46,219 nt of DNA, from positions 1 to 46,219 of the forward strand of contig JAADVB010000153.1 of the NCBI GenBank assembly GCA_023334545.1, written 5' to 3'. The position numbers and the translations under genes are program-made. The notes beneath the pieces were generated by a model. The model did not search any database. It saw only the letters and a program-made list of their open reading frames with translations, and was not told the origin of the DNA. This document shows, in pieces, positions 1 to 42,518 of this stretch (its first letter is position 1; each line of letters starts with the position of its first letter). The DNA comes from Salisapilia sapeloensis. Its lineage: Eukaryota > Oomycota > Peronosporomycetes > Peronosporales > Salisapiliaceae.

Positions 1-534
1 CGGATCTCGGAGCCCACCCGGCAGGTAGATGTCAATGTCAGGGCAGTCCTGTATCGCATCGTACACGTCCACGTCGTTTCGATCCACCAATTTGTAAAGT
101 TCTGCTGATGTCGCATTGCCTTGGTACGCAAAGTCCCATGGAATTATACTATCCTTACGTTCTATGCAAATCTCATGGAGAAGACTTAAATGGAGAATGT
201 CCTGCTTAGAAACCGGATCGCTCCAACTCGATCTCAGGACGCTGGCCGGATAGAATGACTCGTCTTCGTCCGGCAAAGTTCCGAGATATTGCTTTAACAA
301 GATACCCGCTTGCTCATACTTTTCCGCATACTCCACTGGGAAGTTGTAGTCCCAATGGGAAGGTCGATCCTTTGGTCGCATATAGCCATCCTTGATCGGT
401 AGGGAGTTTTGCGTCGGACTTGGTGAAGGAGCTGGCTGTCTTTGTAGATACGACAGATCAAGAAAAAATATCAATGCACCAACTAAGCAAATGCTGATGA
501 GGAAAGCAAGCCGGTTGTTTAGCGTCCTGCTCAT
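1..534 (-). CDS. Type II membrane protein, N-terminal part (truncated by window edge)
   Basis: An open frame of 178 codons starts at the ATG complementary to 532-534 and runs off the left edge with no stop. The N-terminus is a short basic stretch (MSRTLNNR) followed by a hydrophobic segment at about residues 8-25, then a Pro/Ser-rich stem. This is the usual layout of a signal-anchored Golgi or ER type II protein such as a glycosyltransferase. The rest is soluble, rich in Asp and Trp, and includes a DVDVYDAIQDCPDIDIYLPGG stretch that I cannot assign to a family. The catalytic part, if any, lies outside the window. No intron is needed. Function is unknown; a glycosyltransferase is only a guess from topology. 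Confidence 0.6.
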   Translation of the reverse strand, partial: MSRTLNNRLAFLISICLVGALIFFLDLSYLQRQPAPSPSPTQNSLPIKDGYMRPKDRPSHWDYNFPVEYAEKYEQAGILLKQYLGTLPDEDESFYPASVLRSSWSDPVSKQDILHLSLLHEICIERKDSIIPWDFAYQGNATSAELYKLVDRNDVDVYDAIQDCPDIDIYLPGGLRDP

Positions 535-23638: not shown

Positions 23639-26600
23639 TTATTCCTTGGTGGTTTTACGAAGTTCTCCGCTACACTGGTCATCCTCTTTGGGAACGTCTA
23701 CTTTCGCTAATTCTTCATCCTCTGAGTACTTTTTTTCTTCAGCATGCTTATCTTTACTGTCTGAGCTAGCCGCCAACTCGGTTGTGCGACTATCTGTAAC
23801 TCCGTTCGGTATCATCTCCGTCGTCGGACCAGCGGATTTGATATCCTCTTCTATCGACTTGGCCTCACTGTGCCTACTAGAATAAATCGAGGCTCTTCGC
23901 AATCTCACTTGTGCAATTGTTGCGTCTACCACACCAAATAGCCTGCGACGAATTATGGCTCTTCGTATCACGGACTGAATTCGTATAGCAGCGATCACTG
24001 AATGTAGTGACCGCTGACTAGCTTTAGGCATACCATTCTTTCCCAGTAGATTCATTCGATTAACTGTGCGTGATGATCTTGAAAAAAAGCTGTCATTGCT
24101 TTTAGGCGGCAAAATAACTTCACCACGTTCGGTTGCAATTCCTCGCATCAAACGTTCAGACGCTGCCACTAAAAACGCATTAAAGCTGACTCCATTCGTA
24201 GATATCACCAGATTCAACTGGCGAATCCATCGATCCACATCTCTTCGAAGTGGGCGTGATAAGAACATCATGTCGTTAGCATTTGTTACTGTTGGGCCAA
24301 TGGGAAGTGGCAGTTCATAAGCAAATTTGACAAAGTCGTGATGAGATAGATATCCCGTCGCAAGGGGGTCAAATTGTTCCCACAACCTCGCAACAATAGA
24401 CAAATCTTCCTTTGTTATTGCTGACGCATTCTTCTCCGTCGTCTCTTCAAAGCCTTCTAAGATGACAGCAACGAACAGATTCAACAAGACATACGATGCA
24501 ATGAGCATGTACGACACAAAGTAAATGTACGTTATGGTGACCCCAGGCGTGCATCCAATGGTTAAATTCGGGTCACCACGCTCTTGTCGCACTACCACGA
24601 GTGTACTGTAATCATAGTCATCAACACATCCTTCTCCCCCCTGAGTCATGTCAAGCTCATCACTATCTGAATCGACCATGAGGTCGTACATGACATCATT
24701 CCATGCTTCTCCTGTCGAAAAGCGAAAGAGCGTGATCATAGCGTAGCTGAAATATTGGAAGTTGGCATGCTCGTTTAATGCCTCTCCGAGTCGTATGCCA
24801 GCAAAAAGCTGAACACCTGTCACTGCGTACACAAACATGAGGAGAAAAAGGAGTGTCGACACATTTATCAGAGCCGGCATGTTGTCCATTATAGTCATCA
24901 AAATGTTCTGCATACTTTGAGCTCCTTTCATAAGTCGTAGAGCAAGACCCATGCGAAAGCCACGCAAAGTGTTTGCGATTGGTGAAACCTCACCTGGCGT
25001 GGTAAGTGTGATAACTAGAGAGATCGTGCTACCACAGACGACAGCAAAGTCGAAACAATTCCACCGGTCTCGAAAGTACCTCTGAATGCCCAACCCAAGA
25101 AATTTGACTACTGCTTCAGCAAGAAATATGAACCAAAAGAACATATTTCCGTAGTGTTGAATTTCTGTCATCATGTTGGACTGCCGAAAATGAGTCATGG
25201 CAAGTAGAATAGTGTTACTTCCGACGCATGCAGCAACAAATGGCTCAAATCGACGGTGCTGTGTAAGTCGAAAGCATTTAAGTCTAAATAGACTCGTCGG
25301 TTCAGGCAACTTTGGTCGAAGTTTTGTATTCCGAATGACTTCCTGGATTTGAAGCCACTCTCGCTGGGTCTCACTTTCATCATCATCTAAAACGATGCTG
25401 TCACGCAAACGATTAAAGTTGTCAATTACAGCACCAACAACCAAGTTGAGCGTGAAGAAGTCACCGATAATGATGAATACTAGGGACAAGTGTCAAGCAG
25501 TCAATAACATGATCGATTGATCGAAGAGCAATTGACGTACCGATAAAGAAGAAGATGTATCCGCGATGCATATTCTCAACTGGATGATAACCAATTTCTG
25601 TTGCGTCAACACCTTGAAACATGACATCTACCCACCCTTCGGTAGTTGCTAACTCAAACATGGTCATCACTGACTGAAAGAGATTGTCGTAGTTCCGGTT
25701 GTACCGCAACCATCTACCACCGTATGCAAGGCAGTCTTCCTTTGAGAACAGTTTCTTAAAGTTAAGAGACGAAAAGCCATACATGTCTTCCAACTCATTC
25801 ATGCGTTCAGCGGAAAAGGAGCTCATATCACAATAGTACATGCGGCCTTTAAATAAATTAACGCCGATGATACCGAAGATAAAGAATATCAGTAGGCACA
25901 CGAGGCACACGTTCGCGATGCATGGGATACTTGATAGTAGCGCATTTACTACGCGTTTCATTCCTGGGACACGACTTATCATTCGCAATGGTCTCTATGA
26001 CATGTAGGTTGGTAACTTAATACACAGATGAGTACAGAGAAGGTATAATACCAGAGCACGCAGCGTACGGAAAGCTCGAAGAGTGCGTAGTGCTTTACTG
26101 GACGTAAATAGTGTCGAGACGGAGCTTATAAGAATAAGAAGATCCAATGCGTTCCACGGATCTCGTATATATGACCGCTTGCCATTTAACAGAAAGCCCA
26201 TATCGACTACCTTTACCACCATTTCAATGGAGAAAGCGCACGTAAACATGATGTCCATTGTCGCTAGAACTTGTGATATTGTGGTCTCAGGGTCGCTAAT
26301 AGGATTGTCGATGGCCAACTGTACGCTACTTGCTGCAATAAAGAAGAGCACAAGACCTTCAAAACATTGATGATTTGCAATAAGCCCACACCACTTTCGA
26401 AGCCGATTTGATCTGGAGAATAGAAATAGAGACCGGTCTTGATAATAGAAAGGTGTTCTGGATGTAGCAACTCGTACATCTGATGCTGAACGTAAAGTGG
26501 TTGATTCTTCGACAGCAAACGAACGGGTATGTAGTGATGTTGTTCCTTTATAAGACTGTAGAACCCCTGCACTCTTGCTAGCTGCTTCTCTGTTCAACTT

Positions 26601-29600
26601 TCTTGCGGAAGCTATATGCTCGTGTATAGGATTGGTATCGTTATAGTCATCTATTCTTCCCTCCGAGGTTACCGAATCTGGATACATTCCCACTCGCGCT
26701 GTCGATCGTCGCTTCCAGCGATTTCGCCGAGGAGGTGCAGCAGCGAGCTGTGCAGTCTTGATATCTTCTAATAATTGTAGTTGAGGAACAATTGCATTGC
26801 GCTTGTAGGACTTTTGATGCAAAAATGGAGCTGGTGGTTGTGGACATTGGCTCCGTTCGTTCAGCTTTTGACTAGACCCTCCGCTTTTTACAGTCGCTTG
26901 CTCAACAACTACGTCTTCTGCCGTACTAAAGTTGCCGAGAAGAATGGCTAGAAACAGGTTGAGCACGATGATATTACCGAATATCATTACACCAATAAAG
27001 TAGAACATTGCGCTCCATCCAACCGCACGAATGCCATCATACATGACAAAATTCCAGCTTTCTTCGGTAAGCAGTTGAAAGACTGTCGTGAAGGATGATA
27101 GAATGTCATCAAAGTTGGATCTCTTAACTGTGTAAGGTTGTTCCGGTGTCCATGGTGCGTGTGGAGGGGATGTGTAGTTGTACACATGTGGTTGCCACTC
27201 TACAAACTCTCCTGCCTCATTGAAGCGATATTTGGCAGCAAAGAATTGCATACCGATTAGTGCAAACACATACATGAGAAGGAGCAATAACAAGCCGAAG
27301 TTTGCCACATCCGCAAGGCTATTGATCATCTGGACAGTGAAAAATATTGAAATAAGTAGATAGGCAAGAAAATTCCAACATATCATCACATACCGTCTGA
27401 ACAAGTTCCCGTAAAGACGTCCAAGATCGAGCGAGCTTCATCACTCGAAAGAGCCGAAAGCTTCGTAGTGCCGATATGCCCGTGGTTGAACCACCTGGAT
27501 GAGCAGCGTCGATGACCATCTCCACGATGCTAATGCATACAATCACCCCATCAAAAAGATTATAGCCGTCCTGCCTATACTCCTGCCATCCGAGCCCGAT
27601 GAGCTTGATAATCATTTCAAAAATGAAGACGAAAGTCAAGCAAGAATTGACGCCTTCCCGAACTTGATCCTCACTTGGCTTTGAAGGGTATTCTTCCAGC
27701 GCCAGACATAGCGTATTGACCAAGATACAGAAGGTGATGAAATATGAAAAGCGATTACTCTAATGTAGTCATGAAAGCACCTTAGTCGTAATTTTTCAAG
27801 AAAATAGAAGAGAACGTCAAAATTACCACAGCGACGGATCGGCACAAATCTCGGAAGCGCTTGAATGCACTATTGTTGTTGACGACAACCATTGTGCTCT
27901 CCAAATTGCTTTTGATAGATAACCCGAACGCATTCTTCTTTTTGACTGACTTGTTTTCCTCGTCGGTTTTTGCCTCCACGCATGACTTGGATCCACCTCG
28001 ATCAAGCCTCGTTTGATTTTCTTCATCTACATGCCAGCCGCTACCTGCCGCATCGCTGACTGCATTAAATCTCTCCCAAATCACAGCGAAGACGAACTGG
28101 AGAAGGAAAAAAGCACCAATAATCGTGAAAACAACAAAGTAGGAGGTCGCAAATATCCAGCTTTGCGCATCTTGATACTATCATTGTCGTACACTTATTA
28201 TTTAAAATCTAGCATAAAATAATTATAAGATACTTACATCGTACATTACTTCCGTCCAACCTTCAAGGGTTATGCACTGGAAGAGAGTGAGAACCGCATG
28301 ACCAATGTGATCGAAGTTGGTGAACGCGTACTCCCAAGTCTCAAACGGTGACAAGTTTTCCAAATCGACCGAGGTTCCTGCTGGAGGGTTGTACACAGAC
28401 CCACAGTATTGTCCACTAGGGCAAGTATATTCACCTCCACAAAGCTTTCCATCACCAGCTAAAGGCCATACTCCATTAACAGGAAATGGTGTCGATCTAC
28501 ATCGATAATGAAGAGCGCCATTCCAAAATAGAACACCTAGGATACCAAAGACAGTGAAGACGAAGCCCAAGATCACTATCACATTAAACAACGCTGGGAT
28601 GGCGGATAAAAGCGCATGCATAAGCATTCTCATGCCTTTTAAGTTGCTCAACGTTCGCAGTGGTCGAAGTATACGAGCTGAGCGCAATATCGAGATTTTA
28701 GGCACGCCTGGTAAGTCACTGATCGCTCCAAAGAGGACGACAACAAAGTCGAGTTGGTTCCAGTGGCTTCGTAGGTATGAACCTCTGCCAAAGACAAGTC
28801 CCATTCCGATAACCTTCAAGATGCATTCAATTGCGAAGATGTACGTGAAGACAAAGTCAAAACCGTCGGCTAATTGGTTGTACATATCCGGATCAATGTT
28901 CCCATTTTCATCTGGAATAATACCTGGGTCAAGGTAATTTCGAAGTGCTAATGAGATAGAGTTGACGATAATGCAGAATAAAATGAACCTGTCGAACCAC
29001 TTCCAATCAATCAACCAAACGACTGCTAGTCGCAACGGGTTCTCGCAATCCAGTACAAATAATGAAAACTCCGCGTATCTTCGCTTGTGCCCATGCACGA
29101 TAAAGTTGTACTCCAACAAGCCCAATTCACGAATTCCATCGTTAAATTCGGCATATGAGATCTTACCACTGTGGTTATCGTCGAACTTGTAGAACATGTA
29201 CTGAAGTACACTTCCTAGTGTGGTTCGCCTACATTATTCAACCATGTGCATTAGTATTTTCGCGATTTATTCAGTTATATCATTTTAACGTACCGCCTGA
29301 GCTCCTTCTTTATGAGATAAATGAACTTCATCTCAAGGGTAGTAATAGTATTTTCGTCCTTCGAAGCTCTCCATGACTTGGCGCGCATCGTATCGCGAAT
29401 TGACCTTGCTCGAAGCTGTGCTCCTTCCTGATTAGCACGCTCCATTAAACTGGAGGCATATCTGCAGAATTCGTGAAAGTCGATAACGCCGTCGCCGTCC
29501 GTATCAAATACATTCCAAAGGCTTTTAACCGGTGCTTCCTCGGGGTCGTGTACTTCAATTCCTACCGTTTTCAGGATGGCTGCTAGACTTTTGCGTACCT

Positions 29601-30186
29601 TTATTGATATTCGTCGATTAGAACTTTTAGATGGTATTTTCACATCGTCCGCTTCATTTAAACTTTCCGAACTGCTGCTAGATATCGAGTGATTTGTCGA
29701 TGATGCCGATTTGTTCGATCCCAAATGACTCTGGCGATGCTCTGGAATGACCATACTTGAAATTGGTTGCCGTACGTCGTGCTCACCGATCATTTCCGCT
29801 TGGACAAGTGGTGGATGGCTGATTTCTTTATTTAAGCCATTATTGTCAGCAACTTCGATTGCTTCGCGCTGCTGGTGGTCTGATTTTGTTTCTAAACGAC
29901 CACCATCAATGCTATTCTTTGCATCACCAATCAAATCGTTTCGATCCAATGCACTCTTAGTTCCTTCCTCATCTCCATAAACTGCTCTTTTATCCTTTTC
30001 GTATACTTTTAAATCTATAAAGAGGCAAATGGATAAGAACTTGTCTTTGTATCGCTAGAGTATCCCAATCATATGAGGATTACATGTAGTACCATCCATA
30101 GTGTTAGCATCTCGTTCTGGATGGAGAGGTGGTAAACGATTTTGCCGTGTAGAAGAAGGACTCACCAATTTCCTTGGGTTGTCCAT
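23639..30186 (-). CDS. Four-domain voltage-gated calcium-channel-like protein with N-terminal EF-hands
   Basis: Rebuilt as complement(join(23639..25479,25541..25994,26052..27329,27394..27759,27827..28177,28238..29228,29294..30014,30093..30186)), 2031 residues. All seven GT-AG introns (57-78 nt) keep frame. Two canonical EF-hand loops precede the channel: DTDGDGVIDFHE (202-213) and DDNHSGKISYAE (288-299). Four 6-TM repeats follow, each with an S4 bearing Arg/Lys every third residue. The pore loops carry Glu in all four domains: TLEGW (E594), TEESW (E931), TTEGW (E1386) and TGEAW (E1676). This EEEE ring is the calcium-selective pattern of CaV channels. After domain IV come an EF-like segment (FDPLATGYLSHHDF, near 1789) and an IQ motif (IQSVIRRAIIRRR, 1919 on), a likely calmodulin site. 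A plasma-membrane or ciliary Ca2+ channel is likely. The first exon (31 codons) is the least certain part. Confidence 0.9.
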
Positions 30187-30497
30187 CTATCATGCTATTC
30201 GGAGTTACAATGTCGTTTCGTTTCTTTCAGTTGCTTGCAAGCTCAAGCGTACTGCCTCTCTTTAAAAGTGTCTTACTTCAGTACAAAAGCGGAAGGAGCA
30301 ATGTATGGGCACTAGCTGCTTAGCTTTCTTGGAAGATGAGCTTCTTTGGAGAAACTGCCCTGAATATTAAAAGGCGGAACCGTAACGTTTACAACTGATC
30401 GTAGTCTTGGGAACTATAAATACCTCGGACACAAATGAGCGTTGATACACTAATTAGCCTTCGAACATCTAGTGCGGCAACCATCTATCGCTAAACA
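30187..30497. promoter_or_regulatory. Shared divergent promoter region (channel / repeat protein)
   Basis: 311 bases separate the two start codons, so both genes must be driven from here. It is AT-rich. No strong Initiator match was found on either strand. Co-regulation is possible but not shown. Confidence 0.4.
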
Positions 30498-33400
30498 ATG
30501 AATCCGGACGGTCAACATCATGAGCGTCACGGCTCCTTGATCACATCTCGTATTGAAACTATCACAGGTAATCGAGTTGGACGAAAACGAAAAGTAAGAT
30601 CGCGGTCACCTGGCAGTTTACAGCTTGAACCTTTGCCATTGTCAGTCAGACTGCTTTCACCGCGACTGAGTAAAGACCAAATGAAGTTGCTTTTACAGCG
30701 GAACCAAGAAATCAACTTGTCAGATTTTCATTTATCAGACAGTCCAGTGATTCCAGCTAGCCGATCGCCTTGTAAACACTTACTCGCTCCGCTCGAGATA
30801 GAGCATTTGTATCGCAAACGAGTTGTTTTTGACGAACATGGCGAGCTTAGTTATGAAGTTGATGAGATTTTATCTTTGAAAGAATTAAATGACACGATGA
30901 AGGAAGCAATATCACCACTAAATTTGGGGATACTCCCTAGAAAATGTACATATCAAGATGAAGTGGCACTCATGCCTTGCCATTCTTTGGCGTATCGGTA
31001 TTTGCCTCTTCGAATTGAGCAGTGGAAAGAGCCTGTACGTGATCGGTACAAAAATTGGAGAGAAGATGAACTTGAAAATATCTTGTCACTTCAAATGGAC
31101 ACCGACGTCTACAAAATGACAAATACTTTCCGACGCTGGACAGGCAAATGGAGACTGTGGGAATCGAAGAAATTACGCTTGAGGGAAGATAAGCTACACA
31201 AAATGGCTTTCCATACCTCTTGTAGATCCCCAGCTAGAAAGGAAGGGCAATCTACTTTAGACAAAGAAGTTCTACTTCATTATCAAGCTGCAATGATCAG
31301 CAAGACGTATGTGATCGCATCAATTTATGGAGTAGGTATATTTGGCCGAGTGTTTACTGATGGTTTGAAGGAGAAGCAGACGCATAGCCGCCAACTACGT
31401 ATTGACGCCTACGATCCTATTACGTGTCGACATTTTGGACTTGAGCTGACACTCGGCGATCTTGAGTTCCTATTTCAGAATCGAATGGAAATGCTCGGTC
31501 CTGGTAAGAAACGAACGCTATTACAAGAGATCATGAAACTTTTGTACTTTAAGTACCCACAGAACGAATGCATTTATCGAAGCGGTGATGATGGAAACGA
31601 AGACGGGAGTGAAATATTAAGTGTGAGGTCAGAACCTTGTACTCAAGAGATCGAATCAAATGCAGGCGAAGACACATTGCCTATCCTATGCATTTCAATT
31701 GAGCCTAGAATGAATGAGGCTCTACTACGTCGACTAGAGAGACAGGAACGACTTCGTCGGGAAGAGGAAGAGCGTTTGCGGCGATTAGCAGCCTTTATGA
31801 GTCTTCCTCGTCGGAAACGAAATCGTATTATATGCCTTCCGCTTAAATTACAAGGCTACAGGTTCTACATATCTGTCTATAACTTTCCGATGCAGGCAAG
31901 AAGCTTTGTAGTGATAGCTTACGATCCACTCACTTCAACCAACTTTCATTTGAATGTTAGTCTTGCAGATGCAGCAAAGTTGGCTTTTGTAAAGACTCCA
32001 TCTCATAAGTGGAACACCGAATTAAAGGCCAGTATTGCAAGCGCATTACTCCCTCATCTTCATCTAAAAGGACAACTGGCTATACAGAATCAAAATGCCA
32101 TATCCAGTGACAGTCAAGATTACCGTGAATATGCAGTCGCTCTGTGCATGAAAAACGAACGGAAAGGAGTCGTTATTCCTTGGGTCCTACCTAGACAACC
32201 AACAAATGAAGTAACCCAACTTTCCCAAATCCGCTTGGTTAGACGCAAAAATGAAGAATGCTCAGCCCGAGATGAATTTGTAAGAAAGGAAAAACGCATC
32301 AAATCGAAGTATTCCAAGATGCGAAGCGATTTAGAGGATCGTCTACGCGAACTAGAAGTTGAAAAGATGGAATTGAAAATTCGAGACTTAGAATTAAAAG
32401 AGATTATTGACGAAATCGACAGTGGGGAGCATATGAAGGAAGTAGGCATGATGAGTCAGCCCATGGCTGATCTGGATACAAAGCGAAAGGGTCAAATGTC
32501 CAGAAAGGCTCACAAACATGAACGCAAAGCAACCAAAGCGACTTTAACGCTGAACAAAACTAAAATATCAGCACTTAAAAAAGAAATAAGTGCTTTGAAT
32601 GAAGAGGAACGAGAAAACATGGAGATGCTTAAGAGTCGATTTGATCGATCAATAGCAGCCGCTTGTGCAACAGTGGATGATAGTACTCAGTCAAATTATT
32701 GTAACGAAGTGGACGCTCGAACGCGATGTACCCGTACGCACGGGTTGAATACAAGGAACCGGTACTTGAGTAAAGCTCACATACGAAATGGACAAAGATT
32801 TATATCAAGTGGAACCTGCAGATTATTTGATAGCTACTATCGATATTCGATCTTTCAAGTCGATTCTATGTATTCTTGTGCTACAATCGTTGATTCGAAT
32901 GTAGATCAAGAGCCATTCGACGAAGGTATCTTGCTTTCAGTTGAATTTTACGAAGGGAGTGAAAGTAGGAGGCTACATATACGTTTGACGTGTTTAGAAT
33001 GGATTCTCTTCTCAAAAAAGTCACATGAGAAGCAGCTTTTGATACCGGAATTTGCTCTTTCAATGTCAGCTGAGATAGAAAAATTGGTAGAGCATAGGCA
33101 TCGCATGGCAGAATGCCAAACCGAATTAAACAAGTTGAAAAGCTTTAGGCCGAAGAAGACGAAGAGCAAACAAGCGCAGATAAAGACGGAAATACAACAA
33201 CACTTACTTGAACAATCTCGTATCTATGCGAAAGCCCCGTGGAAGCAAGTTATACAAGAAATGATCCAACGGCTTAGCATTTGGTCAGATAAAGGCCTGG
33301 ATATAGATCGCACTATATATGAATCACCTTTATCTATTGTTTCAATTGCCGAAGATAATTCAGATAGCACCGAAGGAAACCTAGTTGAGTGCCAAGTTTC

Positions 33401-33614
33401 CGTAAAGTTTGTTTATCCCGAGCTTGTTTTTGTCGTTCAAACCCTTAAAACCAAAGGGATTTGGGAGATCGTACATCCAGATAGCAAAGAACTTGCGCAC
33501 GAATTGTCCAGGGTGACGTATCTCGAACAACAAGTACAGTTGGAGACTGCATGCCTGTCTTTACTCTTCTTTGCCACAGAATCAGGAAGTATTGGAATCC
33601 GCTTTGAGGAATAA
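30498..33614 (+). CDS. Unknown 1038-residue protein with a repeated beta-rich domain and coiled coil
   Basis: A single-exon protein of unknown function. The N-terminal 50 residues are basic and Ser-rich. A module occurs at least twice: around residues 270-345 (LRIDAYDPITCRHFGLELTLGDLEFLF) and around 450-530 (FVVIAYDPLTSTNFHLNVSLADAAKLAF). They share AYDP-x-T, F-x-L and L-x-D-x3-L-x-F, followed by an amphipathic helix. A third, weaker copy is near 770-860. Between copies are an Arg/Glu-rich helix (RRLERQERLRREEEERLRRL) and a long coiled coil at about 590-720. No membrane segment, catalytic motif or known domain is recognised. The layout suggests a structural or scaffold protein. It ends 27 bases from the convergent membrane-protein gene. 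Confidence 0.85.
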   Translation: MNPDGQHHERHGSLITSRIETITGNRVGRKRKVRSRSPGSLQLEPLPLSVRLLSPRLSKDQMKLLLQRNQEINLSDFHLSDSPVIPASRSPCKHLLAPLEIEHLYRKRVVFDEHGELSYEVDEILSLKELNDTMKEAISPLNLGILPRKCTYQDEVALMPCHSLAYRYLPLRIEQWKEPVRDRYKNWREDELENILSLQMDTDVYKMTNTFRRWTGKWRLWESKKLRLREDKLHKMAFHTSCRSPARKEGQSTLDKEVLLHYQAAMISKTYVIASIYGVGIFGRVFTDGLKEKQTHSRQLRIDAYDPITCRHFGLELTLGDLEFLFQNRMEMLGPGKKRTLLQEIMKLLYFKYPQNECIYRSGDDGNEDGSEILSVRSEPCTQEIESNAGEDTLPILCISIEPRMNEALLRRLERQERLRREEEERLRRLAAFMSLPRRKRNRIICLPLKLQGYRFYISVYNFPMQARSFVVIAYDPLTSTNFHLNVSLADAAKLAFVKTPSHKWNTELKASIASALLPHLHLKGQLAIQNQNAISSDSQDYREYAVALCMKNERKGVVIPWVLPRQPTNEVTQLSQIRLVRRKNEECSARDEFVRKEKRIKSKYSKMRSDLEDRLRELEVEKMELKIRDLELKEIIDEIDSGEHMKEVGMMSQPMADLDTKRKGQMSRKAHKHERKATKATLTLNKTKISALKKEISALNEEERENMEMLKSRFDRSIAAACATVDDSTQSNYCNEVDARTRCTRTHGLNTRNRYLSKAHIRNGQRFISSGTCRLFDSYYRYSIFQVDSMYSCATIVDSNVDQEPFDEGILLSVEFYEGSESRRLHIRLTCLEWILFSKKSHEKQLLIPEFALSMSAEIEKLVEHRHRMAECQTELNKLKSFRPKKTKSKQAQIKTEIQQHLLEQSRIYAKAPWKQVIQEMIQRLSIWSDKGLDIDRTIYESPLSIVSIAEDNSDSTEGNLVECQVSVKFVYPELVFVVQTLKTKGIWEIVHPDSKELAHELSRVTYLEQQVQLETACLSLLFFATESGSIGIRFEE

Positions 33615-38476: not shown

Positions 38477-39197
38477 TCGACAACAGGACAAGTATAATTT
38501 CTTTCGTGCATTTGTCAATGTATTCCGTTAAACCAAGTGAGTCGGACGCAGGGAGCGACTGGACCACGATGATCTAGTACTTTTGCAGCTCAAGACTTGT
38601 AGCATGAACCAAAACCTATCTCGTCCTCTTTCTCGTCCGTCTACTATACAGGCGTACGCACGTGAGACTAATCAAGCCTCTAGAGAGTAGAGCTGATGAT
38701 GGAAATCCAGGGTACCGACATGGAACCTATCTGCACACGCGATGCTGTCGTCATCTCATCCAACGTTGAAGAATGTACATCCGGTTCATGTCACTGGTCT
38801 ACCTCATCGTGCGCTTCATGCACAAGCGTCGTCGATGGACGAAGCAGATCTTAGCAACGTCATCCTGTTCCCTCCAGATGGCTTCATCTACGCGGTCTAC
38901 ATGGCCCTTTACCCGCTGACGCAGTTCAGGAAGCCTTTTTATGTTCCACCGCGTCACATTCGCTCCATATAAATACCTACAGTTGGATCTTGGTCCAGAT
39001 AAAGATCGGCAAACGCACCGATGGCCGACTAGTGTCATTCCTGCTTTTGCTCCAGACGCCTCGAGCACGTGTCTACCTTCCCCACCGGCTTATCTACTCA
39101 CTTTGCTATCTTCCCAGCTAGCAAAAGCCCCACGAGTTTGCCACCTTTCCCCAAGAGATCGTTCCATCCACACCTACGACACTATCAACTATAAACC
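38477..39197. other. Promoter region of ATP-citrate lyase
   Basis: 721 bases between two plus-strand genes. Short frames (for example 38742-38972) have no features. The right part is pyrimidine-rich before the ATG. No perfect Initiator match is found. Confidence 0.45.
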
Positions 39198-42100
39198 ATG
39201 TCTGCCAAAGCGATTCGCGAATTTGATGGCAAACGCCTCTTGTCGGACAATGTGACTGCGTTCCAGCTTGAGAAGCGATTTGCACAAGTCAGTGCGACCG
39301 AGCTAAAGGACCAGAGCAAGGAAGACTTCTTCCAGCAGATCGAAGCAGCCAACCCGTGGCTGTCGGATCTTGGCGACGAAAAGCTCGTGGTCAAGCCTGA
39401 CCAACTCATCAAGCGTCGTGGTAAGGCCAACCTCTTGTTGCTCAATGCTACGTGGGAGCAGGTGCAAGACTGGATCTGGGAACGTATGAACCAGAACCTC
39501 CAAGTCGAGGCCGTTTCGGGTGTCCTCACGCACTTCATTGTCGAGCCGTTTGTCAAACACGACGGTAAGGACGAGCACTACGTGTGCATCGTTTCCAACC
39601 GTGAAGGCGAAGAGATCCTCTTCCACCACGAAGGTGGTGTCGACGTCGGTGACGTCGACCAGAAAGCCATGCGTCTCCAAGTGCCTATCGAACGGCCTGC
39701 GACGGAAGACGAGATCAAGGGATCCTTGCTGACCCACCTGGAGGAAAGCCGAAAGGAGACCATGGCTGCCTTCCTCGCCTCCATGCTGCGTGCCTTCCGC
39801 GACCTCCACTTTGTCTACATGGAGATCAACCCTCTTGTCTTTGTCGGCGCCACTGGCAAGCTCGCCGTGCTGGACATGGCTGCCAAGCTCGATGAGACGG
39901 CCAACTTCCTCGTCGGTGAAAAGTGGGGAAGCCAATTGGAGTTCCCGCCAGCCTTTGGCCGTGCAGCGTTCCCGGAAGAAGAGTTCATCTCGGACTTGGA
40001 CTCCAAGACGGGAGCTTCGCTTAAACTCACGATCCTCAACCACACTGGTCGAATCTGGACGATGGTTGCTGGTGGCGGAGCGTCCGTCGTGTACGCTGAC
40101 ACGATTGCCGACCTCGGATTCGGCAAAGAGCTTGCAAACTACGGAGAGTACTCTGGTGCACCTAGCGAAGCCCACACGTACCAGTACGCCAAGACGATCT
40201 TGGATCTCATGACGAGGGGAGACGTCGACGAACGTGGCAAGGTGCTTATCATTGGTGGTGGTATCGCCAACTTTACGGACGTTGCCATGACGTTCAAGGG
40301 CATCATTCGTGCAATCACTGAGTACCAGACCCAATTGAAGCAGCACAAGGTCCACATCTGGGTGCGTCGTGGTGGTCCGAACTACCAGGAAGGACTCACG
40401 GTCATGCGTGAAGTCGGTGAAACGACGGGTGTCCCGATCGAAGTCTTTGGCCCAGAGACGCACATCACCGCCGTGGTCCCCATGGCTCTTGGTCTCATGA
40501 CGCCTCCGACGGAAGAAGAGTTGGAGGAAAAGCGTCGTGTGCGTGAAGTGCCGACCAAGAAGGCTACCAAGAAGGCTAAGAAGGAGCAGAAGAAGGAAAA
40601 AGCCAATGACTCCACGGAAGAAGAGGACAAGGAGCCTGCTTCGACCCCCGAAGTCCCGCGTACGCCTATCCAGCAGGATGAAGGTATCGTCCGCATGCAC
40701 GAAGGCTCTCGTTGCATCGTCTACGGTCTCCAGCAGCGTGCCGTGCAAGGAATGCTCGACTTTGACTACCTGTGCAAGCGCGCGACGCCGAGTGTGGCAG
40801 CACTCATCTTCCCGTTCTCGCCGAACCACTACCTCAAGTTCTACTGGGGCACGACGGAGCGTCTCATCCCTGTCTACCAGGACCTGAAGCAGGCGGTGAA
40901 GAAGTTCCCGGACGTCAGCGTCCTCATCAACTTCTCGTCCTTCCGTTCCGTCTACTCGTCGACGATGGAAGCGCTCGAGTGCAGTGAAACGCTCAAGACG
41001 CACGCGATCATTGCTGAAGGTGTTCCGGAGGCCCAGACGCGTCTTATCGTGAAGAAGGCGAGTGAGAAGGGCGTTGGTCTGATCGGACCTGCGACGGTCG
41101 GCGGCATCAAGCCTGGCTGCATGCGTCTTGGTAACACTGGAGGTATGCTCGACAACATTGTCCAGTCGAAGCTCTACCGACCTGGCAGCGTCGCGTACGT
41201 GTCCAAGAGTGGAGGTATGTCGAATGAGCTGAACAACATCATCAGCCAGAGCTCGGATGGTGTGTATGAAGGTGTGGCCATTGGTGGTGACAAGTACCCT
41301 GGCTCGACGTTCATCCAGCACCTCTTGCGTTACGAAGCTAACCCTGAGATCAAGATGATGGTGCTGCTAGGTGAAGTCGGTGGCACGGATGAATTCCAGG
41401 TCTGCCGTGCTATCCAGGAAGGACGCATCACCAAGCCTGTCGTCGCCTGGTGCATCGGTACGTGTGCCAAGATCTTCCCGTTCGAGGTGCAGTTCGGTCA
41501 CGCTGGTGCCTGCGCGACTGGCGAGTCGGAGACTGCCTCTGCCAAGAACGAGGCACTCGGCAAGGCTGGTGCGCACGTCCCATCCACCTTCGATGACTTT
41601 GGCAACAAGATCCGAGAGGTGTACTCGAAGCTTGTGGCGGACGGCACGATCGAAGAGAAGCCAGAGATGCCGGTGCCGAAGGTTCCGATGGACTACTCGT
41701 GGGCGAAGAACCTCGGACTTATCCGTAAGCCTGCCAACTTCATCTCGTCCATCACGGACGACCGTGGAGAGGAGCTGAAGTACTCTGGCATGCCCATCTC
41801 CCGTGTCTTCGAAGAGGACATGGGCATTGGTGGTGTCCTCGGTCTGCTCTGGTTCAAGCGCCGTCTGCCGCCATATGCTTCTAAATTCATCGAGATGGTG
41901 CTGATGGTCACTGCCGACCATGGTCCTGCCGTGTCTGGTGCGCACAACACGATCGTGACGGCGCGTGCCGGCAAGGACCTCATCTCGAGTCTCGTGTCTG
42001 GTCTCTTGACGATTGGACCACGATTCGGTGGTGCGCTCGACAAGGCAGCCGAGATGTTCGCGACGGCATACGACTCTGGTGTCGACGCGGCGGACTTTGT

Positions 42101-42518
42101 CGCTGACATGCGCCGCAAGAATGAGCTTATTATGGGTATCGGTCACCGCATTAAGTCGCTGAACAACCCGGACAAGCGTGTGGAGATCGTCAAGGAGTAC
42201 GCTCAAGCCAATTTCCCAGCGACGGACATTCTCAACTTTGCGCTTGAAGTGGAACAAGTGACGACCAAGAAGCGTAGCAACTTGATTCTCAACGTTGACG
42301 GCTGCATTGCTGTCTGCTTTGTCGATCTGCTGCGTAACTGTGGTGCGTTCACGCGTGAAGAAGCGGACGAGCAGATCGAGCACGGCTGCCTGAACGGCCT
42401 ATTTGTCCTCGGCCGTAGCATGGGTTTCATTGGTCACTACCTGGACCAGAAGAGGCTCAAGCAGCCCTTGTACCGTCACCCGTGGGACGACATTTCGTAC
42501 ATGGAAGAAGACCTTTAA
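39198..42518 (+). CDS. ACLY: ATP-citrate synthase (ATP-citrate lyase), single-chain form
   Basis: A 1106-residue single-exon protein in the animal-type fused form. Residues 1 to about 420 are the ATP-grasp/citrate-binding half. A Lys/Glu-rich linker is at about 452-485, as in human ACLY. The CoA-ligase part follows with the phosphohistidine in FGHAGA (H768) and the downstream [11 protein letters not shown]. The C-terminal citrate-synthase-like domain (about 840-1100) has [14 protein letters not shown] and [18 protein letters not shown]. The enzyme turns cytosolic citrate, CoA and ATP into acetyl-CoA and oxaloacetate for lipid and sterol-precursor synthesis and acetylation. Codon use is strongly GC3-biased, suggesting high expression. 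It is flanked by two inverted MFS paralogues, with a Yhm2-type citrate carrier next door. Confidence 0.98.

What the first reader, a model, noticed from the sequence alone, without database searches (positions are those of the whole stretch)
28238..30186. EF-hand pair placed N-terminal to a four-domain voltage-gated channel
Seen directly: two canonical 12-residue EF-hand loops (residues 202-213 and 288-299) lie on adjacent exons, joined in frame to domain I of a CaV-like channel. Animal and fungal four-domain channels have their EF-hand region after domain IV. This protein has that too (near residue 1789) plus an IQ motif at 1919. A channel with a calcium sensor at both ends would be a distinctive lineage-specific architecture, perhaps giving double feedback by calcium in zoospores or hyphal tips.
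Basis: partly seen in the sequence, partly recalled or inferred. Interest (0 to 1): 0.75.

Follow-up and report, generated by a model that had tools for sequence, protein, structure and literature searches.

The report
Calcium channel with N-terminal EF-hand sensor
This is a gene, likely from an oomycete (water mould), for a four-domain voltage-gated channel predicted to conduct calcium; two EF-hand motifs, predicted to bind calcium, are joined to its front end, the same arrangement occurs in three other oomycetes, and it likely lets calcium inside the cell adjust the channel directly.

Summary
A minus-strand gene (30186-23639, 8 exons, seven GT-AG introns of 57-69 bp) gives one 2034-residue frame: two canonical EF-hand loops (residues 205-216 and 291-302), then four Ion_trans domains with an EEEE filter, a C-terminal EF-like region and an IQ motif. 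EF-hand 2 and channel domain I lie in one exon, so only EF-hand 1 depends on a splice. The order is not a gene-model accident: full-length proteins of Lagenidium giganteum, Pythium oligandrum and Albugo laibachii have it (49-55% identity), as does one unnamed contig fragment with both loops; four more fragments show EF-hand 2 joined to domain I. The four full-length channels form one fully supported clade. Eleven other multi-domain channel loci of the same genome showed no EF-loop pattern. My paper searches found no description. 'Sensor at both ends' is only partly borne out: the C-terminal EF loop lacks canonical ligands, though its profile match is detectable in orthologues, and the IQ motif is kept. 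Most likely the N-terminal pair is a built-in calcium sensor acting on voltage sensor I, where some animal CaV1 channels instead recruit calmodulin. Calcium binding and gating effects are untested.

The parts
23639..30186 (-). whole gene: 8 exons, 2034-residue four-domain channel with N-terminal EF-hands
   Evidence: gene model with seven GT-AG introns, one open frame; Pfam
29294..30014 (-). exon 2: poorly conserved N-terminus and EF-hand 1 (residues 35-274)
29470..29505 (-). EF-hand loop 1, DTDGDGVIDFHE, residues 205-216
   Evidence: conserved in P0001, P0002, P0003, P0121
29229..29293 (-). intron 2 (65 bp, GT-AG) between the two EF-hands
28238..29228 (-). exon 3: EF-hand 2 and channel domain I in one open frame (residues 275-605)
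29147..29182 (-). EF-hand loop 2, DDNHSGKISYAE, residues 291-302
   Evidence: conserved in P0001-P0003, P0121-P0124, P0126
29009..29107 (-). conserved pre-S1 link (residues 316-348, EYNF.VHG.KRR..SLF..) from EF-hand 2 to domain I; also recognisable in a channel without N-terminal EF-hands
   Evidence: alignments; P0006 sequence
24335..24370 (-). degenerate C-terminal EF-like loop DPLATGYLSHHD, residues 1792-1803
   Evidence: AF2 helices either side
23948..23980 (-). IQ motif (IQSVIRRAIIR, residues 1922-1932), seen by eye
   Evidence: predicted helix; no Pfam IQ match listed for the window

Best explanation
The gene encodes a four-domain voltage-gated channel, predicted to conduct calcium, with two EF-hand motifs joined directly in front of domain I, and this pair likely acts as a built-in calcium sensor that adjusts the channel. 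Shown: one open frame; canonical ligand positions filled in both loops; EEEE selectivity filter; charged S4 segments; the same order in orthologues. Inferred: depolarisation opens the channel, calcium enters, binds the EF pair beside the membrane, and the change of shape passes through the short conserved pre-S1 link to voltage sensor I, most likely promoting inactivation. The IQ motif at the other end would add calmodulin-based control. It would work like the two-ended calcium control of animal CaV1.2/1.3, whose N-terminal NSCaTE motif recruits calmodulin, except that here the N-terminal sensor is part of the channel itself. The EF pair appears to have been added in front of a pre-S1 segment that a channel without N-terminal EF-hands also has.
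For: Gene model; Pfam EF-hand and Ion_trans above cut-off; same order in 3 of 3 named full-length orthologues and in P0121, with EF2 plus domain I in P0122, P0123, P0124 and P0126. EF region 39-42% identical to the three orthologues, against 9-24% for the preceding N-terminus: it is kept while its surroundings drift. Loop positions 1, 3 and 5 carry the same residues (D, D, D in loop 1; D, N, S in loop 2) in all five sequences with both loops. AF2 model of P0121: helix-loop-helix at both sites, pLDDT of the 10-residue blocks 60-84. Sequence matches of the EF region in the PDB are calmodulins among the 60 of 323 shown, best a calmodulin-calcineurin fusion, E 1.6e-11. EEEE filter and charged S4 in 4 of 4. 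Precedent for N- plus C-terminal calcium control: abstract of PMC3634016. One clade, SH-aLRT 100.
Against: No binding, transcript or current data exist here. The loops are 86 residues apart in the window (65-67 in the three orthologues), far wider than the usual EF pair (recalled), so they may not fold as one unit. Albugo loop 1 ends in D, not E, which can favour magnesium (recalled). The AF2 model is poor overall (mean pLDDT 51, pTM 0.30), so the EF fold rests on sequence. In P. oligandrum the C-terminal region matches an EF-hand pair profile, so the N-terminal pair may not be the only, or the main, sensor. The sign of regulation is a guess.
Confidence: 0.6

Rival explanations
1. Self-contained calmodulin: the N-terminal EF domain binds the channel's own C-terminal IQ region, so that one channel chain supplies both sensor and target and needs no calmodulin.
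For: EF domain resembles calmodulin best by sequence; IQ motif kept in 4 of 4 by eye.
Against: IQ motifs are widespread in four-domain channels of many clades (PMC5824947 passages), so the IQ needs no such partner; no docking evidence.
Confidence: 0.15
2. The EF pair is a structural, trafficking or partner-binding module that holds calcium or magnesium constantly and does not change gating.
For: Wide loop spacing; D at position 12 of loop 1 in Albugo.
Against: Canonical ligands kept in both loops of five sequences; position next to voltage sensor I.
Confidence: 0.22
3. The EF-hands belong to a separate gene and the fusion is an error of gene prediction.
For: No RNA evidence is at hand.
Against: EF2 and domain I share one exon; the same fusion in three annotated oomycetes and in contig fragments.
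Confidence: 0.03

Closest known systems
P0001-P0003: uncharacterised orthologues in Lagenidium giganteum, Pythium oligandrum, Albugo laibachii
   Same: Same order: two EF loops, four channel domains, C-terminal EF-like region, IQ; 53, 55 and 49% identity, P0002 over a local alignment of 47% of the query region
   Different: Loop spacing 65-67 instead of 86 residues; named only as hypothetical, uncharacterised or EF-hand domain-containing proteins in the listing
Animal CaV1.2/CaV1.3 with NSCaTE plus IQ
   Same: Calcium-linked elements at both ends of a four-domain channel (PMC3634016 abstract)
   Different: NSCaTE is a short calmodulin-binding motif, not an EF-hand; the window is outside the animal branch
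Two-pore channels (plant TPC1)
   Same: EF-hands built into a voltage-gated channel chain
   Different: Two channel domains, EF-hands between them (PMC11085791 passage)
Other protist four-domain channels with EF-hands in linkers (P0006, P0008, P0078, P0081)
   Same: EF-hands inside a four-domain channel chain
   Different: EF-hands lie between domains (I-II or II-III), not before domain I

Membership tests
[quoted passage not shown]
   4 stretches, 736 bits
[quoted passage not shown]
   DI-DIV S4 alignments, DIV with fewer charges
Calcium-type FVCC | E/E/E/E selectivity filter | tested here: met
   E597, E934, E1389, E1679 by alignment
Calcium-type FVCC | calcium-selective current | not testable with these tools
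   needs electrophysiology
Animal HVA CaV | falls in the animal CaV branch of the tree | tested here: not met
   separate clade, SH-aLRT 100; two animal rows in the tree
Animal HVA CaV | AID motif for the beta subunit in linker I-II | tested here: inconclusive
   not seen by eye after DI S6; motif recalled, no profile search made
CaV/NaV C-terminal domain | GPHH/EF-like region after domain IV and IQ motif | tested here: inconclusive
   GPHH, cut-off 26.8 bits: 16.5 in the window, 25.7, 28.9 and 19.7 in P0001, P0002, P0003; IQ by eye, Pfam IQ 13.2 bits in P0002, cut-off 20.3; helices predicted
EF-hand proteins | canonical 12-residue loops, profile score above cut-off | tested here: met
   EF-hand_1 48.6 bits, cut-off 25.4
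EF-hand proteins | calcium binding | not testable with these tools
   needs ITC or similar
NSCaTE-bearing CaV1 | xWxxx(I/L)xxxx motif in the N-terminus | tested here: not met
   W201 and W249 are the only tryptophans in residues 1-318; by eye neither has I or L four residues on
Two-pore channels | two channel domains with EF-hands between | tested here: not met
   four domains, EF-hands before domain I

The most novel reading that the evidence does not exclude
An oomycete channel that carries its own calmodulin: the N-terminal EF module clamps the channel's own IQ tail when calcium enters, giving calcium-dependent inactivation without calmodulin, an architecture that arose once, in an ancestor shared by Albugo and the Pythium-like oomycetes.
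Probability: 0.13. Interest if true: 0.75.

Novelty: new variant of a known kind. Interest (0 to 1): 0.5.

Why it matters
How calcium channels sense their own calcium has been worked out largely with calmodulin as a separate subunit (recalled). A channel family with the sensor fused next to voltage sensor I gives a natural test of whether N-terminal calcium sensing alone can gate a four-domain channel. It also adds a lineage-specific part to oomycete calcium signalling, where verapamil, an inhibitor of voltage-gated calcium channels, is reported to block zoospore release in Phytophthora infestans (PMC5322657 passages). The large survey of protist four-domain channels that I could search mapped filter, S4, inactivation gate, AID and IQ, and its main text has no occurrence of 'EF-hand' or 'EF hand'.

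Tried and rejected
Separate-gene artefact: rejected. General feature of this genome's channels: rejected as far as tested. An EF-loop pattern was looked for on the coding strand of 11 other loci with two or more Ion_trans matches: C433, C311, C68 and C451, C15, C131, C223, C91, C135, C47, C425; 0 of 11 had one. The pattern did work in the same genome: on C113 it found two loops, but after the second of two channel domains, not before the first. The search reads exons unspliced, so a loop split by an intron or a looser loop would be missed. The EF part of the N-terminal query matched only the window in the genome.

First homologue search with residues 150-340 alone found nothing at E <= 0.001 among 392 candidates: too few shared words, not absence. 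One search scored 7,989 candidates, 2,999 passed, and only the best 120 were shown; one search gave 52. EF loops before the first channel domain were seen in 9 of 173 sequences (172 hits plus the window). Many of the 172 are fragments or may lack their N-terminus, so absence in them says little. The 7 rows named Phytophthora in the list and the 2 have no N-terminal EF-hand; loss in Phytophthora is possible but not shown, because split gene models could be missed.

Position of the clade: ciliate channels came out as sister in FastTree (0.90) but the join was open in IQ-TREE; I draw nothing from it. Structure: the model of P0121 is weak outside the EF region. The 50 Foldseek rows shown (of 312) are voltage-gated channels, and the VIA-align rows cover mainly residues 287-449, so the EF part was barely tested by fold. 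C-terminal model (exon 8; mean pLDDT 60): helices on both sides of the degenerate loop and a long helix over the IQ; not searched further. Supplementary files of papers could not be read.

Papers, what I saw: passages of PMC5824947, PMC5322657, PMC11085791, PMC4685582, PMC4820453, PMC2705460, PMC5395580, PMC3194816; abstract and section 5 of PMC3634016. Literature searches; of the other papers there I saw the listing only.

Full report
What is there. The channel gene runs on the minus strand from 30186 to 23639. Eight exons joined over seven GT-AG introns of 57-69 bp give one 2034-residue frame. Pfam finds four Ion_trans domains (736 bits) and EF-hand_1 twice (48.6 bits, cut-off 25.4), with EF-hand models best at residues 198-222 and 286-304; the C-terminal GPHH match is weak (16.5 bits, cut-off 26.8). 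In 20,000 shuffles of residues 1-318, two canonical loops arose once; in 2,000 shuffles of the whole protein, never.

Is it one protein? EF-hand 2 and domain I share exon 3 with no intron between them, so only EF-hand 1 depends on a splice, at 29293-29229. Full-length proteins listed for three other oomycetes have both EF-hands before domain I: Lagenidium giganteum (P0001, 53%), Pythium oligandrum (P0002, 55%, local alignment over 47% of the query region) and Albugo laibachii (P0003, 49%). P0121, an unnamed 588-residue product of a sequence contig, has both loops and domain I in one frame; it has about 28 extra residues at the place of the window's intron 2, which looks like an intron read through (inference). 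P0122, P0123, P0124 and P0126 show loop 2 joined to domain I.

Conservation. Against the three orthologues the EF region is 39-42% identical, the preceding N-terminus 9-24%, domain I 60-67% and the C-terminal region after domain IV 27-38%. Loop 1 is D-x-D-x-D-G in all five sequences that hold both loops; the last ligand is E, in Albugo D. Loop 2 is D-x-N-x-S-G with E at the end in all five. The loops are 86 residues apart in the window and 65-67 in the three orthologues, against about 36 in a usual pair (recalled); a further predicted helix lies between them. Each canonical hand is preceded by a helix that could be a ruined partner hand, as in a calmodulin lobe whose first loop is lost. This is inference, though the sequence matches in the PDB are calmodulins (60 of 323 shown), matched best around their second EF-hand.

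Where it sits in the family. In a 72-sequence FastTree and a 28-sequence IQ-TREE, the window and P0001-P0003 form one clade (support 1.0 and SH-aLRT 100, stem 0.73 and 0.72 changes per site). The three closest relatives in the same genome (C311, C68, C433, each placed by one open stretch of 710-886 residues) fall with other oomycete channels: C311 and C68 with P. insidiosum, C433 with Phytophthora, Lagenidium and P. oligandrum. No EF-loop pattern was found in these three loci or in eight more loci with two or more Ion_trans matches (0 of 11). C113, a locus with two Ion_trans matches, has two EF loops after the second. So the EF pair marks one old oomycete channel line, already present before Albugo and the Pythium-like oomycetes parted, if the gene was inherited vertically. 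That the window comes from an oomycete is itself inferred from these relatives; the genome (19.5 Mb, 452 contigs) is unnamed.

How it likely works. Filter residues E597, E934, E1389 and E1679 and charged S4 segments predict a voltage-gated calcium channel. A review passage says that oomycete channels of this type lack an aspartate in domain II that vertebrate channels need for calcium selectivity (PMC4820453); the window has S after the filter glutamate there (TEESW), so selectivity is uncertain. The EF pair ends about 35 residues before S1. Between them lies a well conserved link (EYNF.VHG.KRR...SLF) that is also recognisable in P0006, a channel without N-terminal EF-hands (NFEAHGKKVRFAARSLYLF). 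I infer that the EF pair was added in front of an existing pre-S1 segment and acts on voltage sensor I through it. At the far end the EF-like loop has L, R, K or Q at ligand position 3 in the four proteins, and the IQ motif is kept; an exon-8 model gives helices around both. In snail and mammalian CaV1 channels, calmodulin on the N-terminal NSCaTE and the C-terminal IQ promotes calcium-dependent inactivation (PMC3634016 abstract). The window's two N-terminal tryptophans do not fit the NSCaTE motif (by eye). By analogy I commit to calcium-dependent inactivation by a fused sensor, at 0.6.

Against it. No binding, transcript or current data; wide loop spacing; a weak overall model (mean pLDDT 51); an EF part that the fold searches barely tested; and a C-terminal EF-like region that in P. 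oligandrum is the best stretch of an EF-hand pair profile (60.5 bits for the whole protein over three stretches), so that end may sense calcium too.

What is known. My literature searches showed no paper that describes N-terminal EF-hands in a four-domain channel, going by listings and by the passages read. The main survey of protist four-domain channels has no occurrence of EF-hand, EF hand, Albugo, Pythium or Lagenidium in its main text; its supplements were not readable. The database entries of P0001 and P0002 are labelled EF-hand domain-containing, so the domain has been annotated. EF-hands also occur between domains in a few unnamed protist channels (P0006, P0008, P0078, P0081), so gaining EF-hands looks like a recurrent move and this is a new variant of a known kind, not a new kind.

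Noticed in passing
P0006 and P0008: Unnamed protist four-domain channels with several EF-hand loops in linker I-II and PDZ plus weak ubiquitin-like matches in linker II-III.
   Followed up: partly
P0078 and P0081: Four-domain channels with EF-hands in linkers I-II and II-III (P0078) or II-III (P0081): EF-hands seem to have been gained at several sites.
   Followed up: partly
L023 (G000:C113:108500-117500): Locus with two Ion_trans matches and an EF-hand loop pair (DLDNSGSVEEAE, DEDGSGQIDVVE) just after the second, in the same open frame as the second; not the arrangement of plant TPC1.
   Followed up: partly
L027 (G000:C451), L028 (G000:C15): Open frames of 1673 and 2813 codons with four Ion_trans matches each and without EF-loop pattern; possibly single-gene tetrameric channels of another type.
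   Followed up: no
window 30186 to 30498: The channel gene and a plus-strand 1039-codon frame (30495-33611, no Pfam match at E 0.001) start back to back about 310 bases apart and may share a promoter region.
   Followed up: no
window 39195-42515 (+) and 39306-41366 (-): ATP-citrate lyase gene on the plus strand with a 687-codon open frame on the opposite strand that has no Pfam match at E 0.001; probably a by-product of codon use.
   Followed up: no
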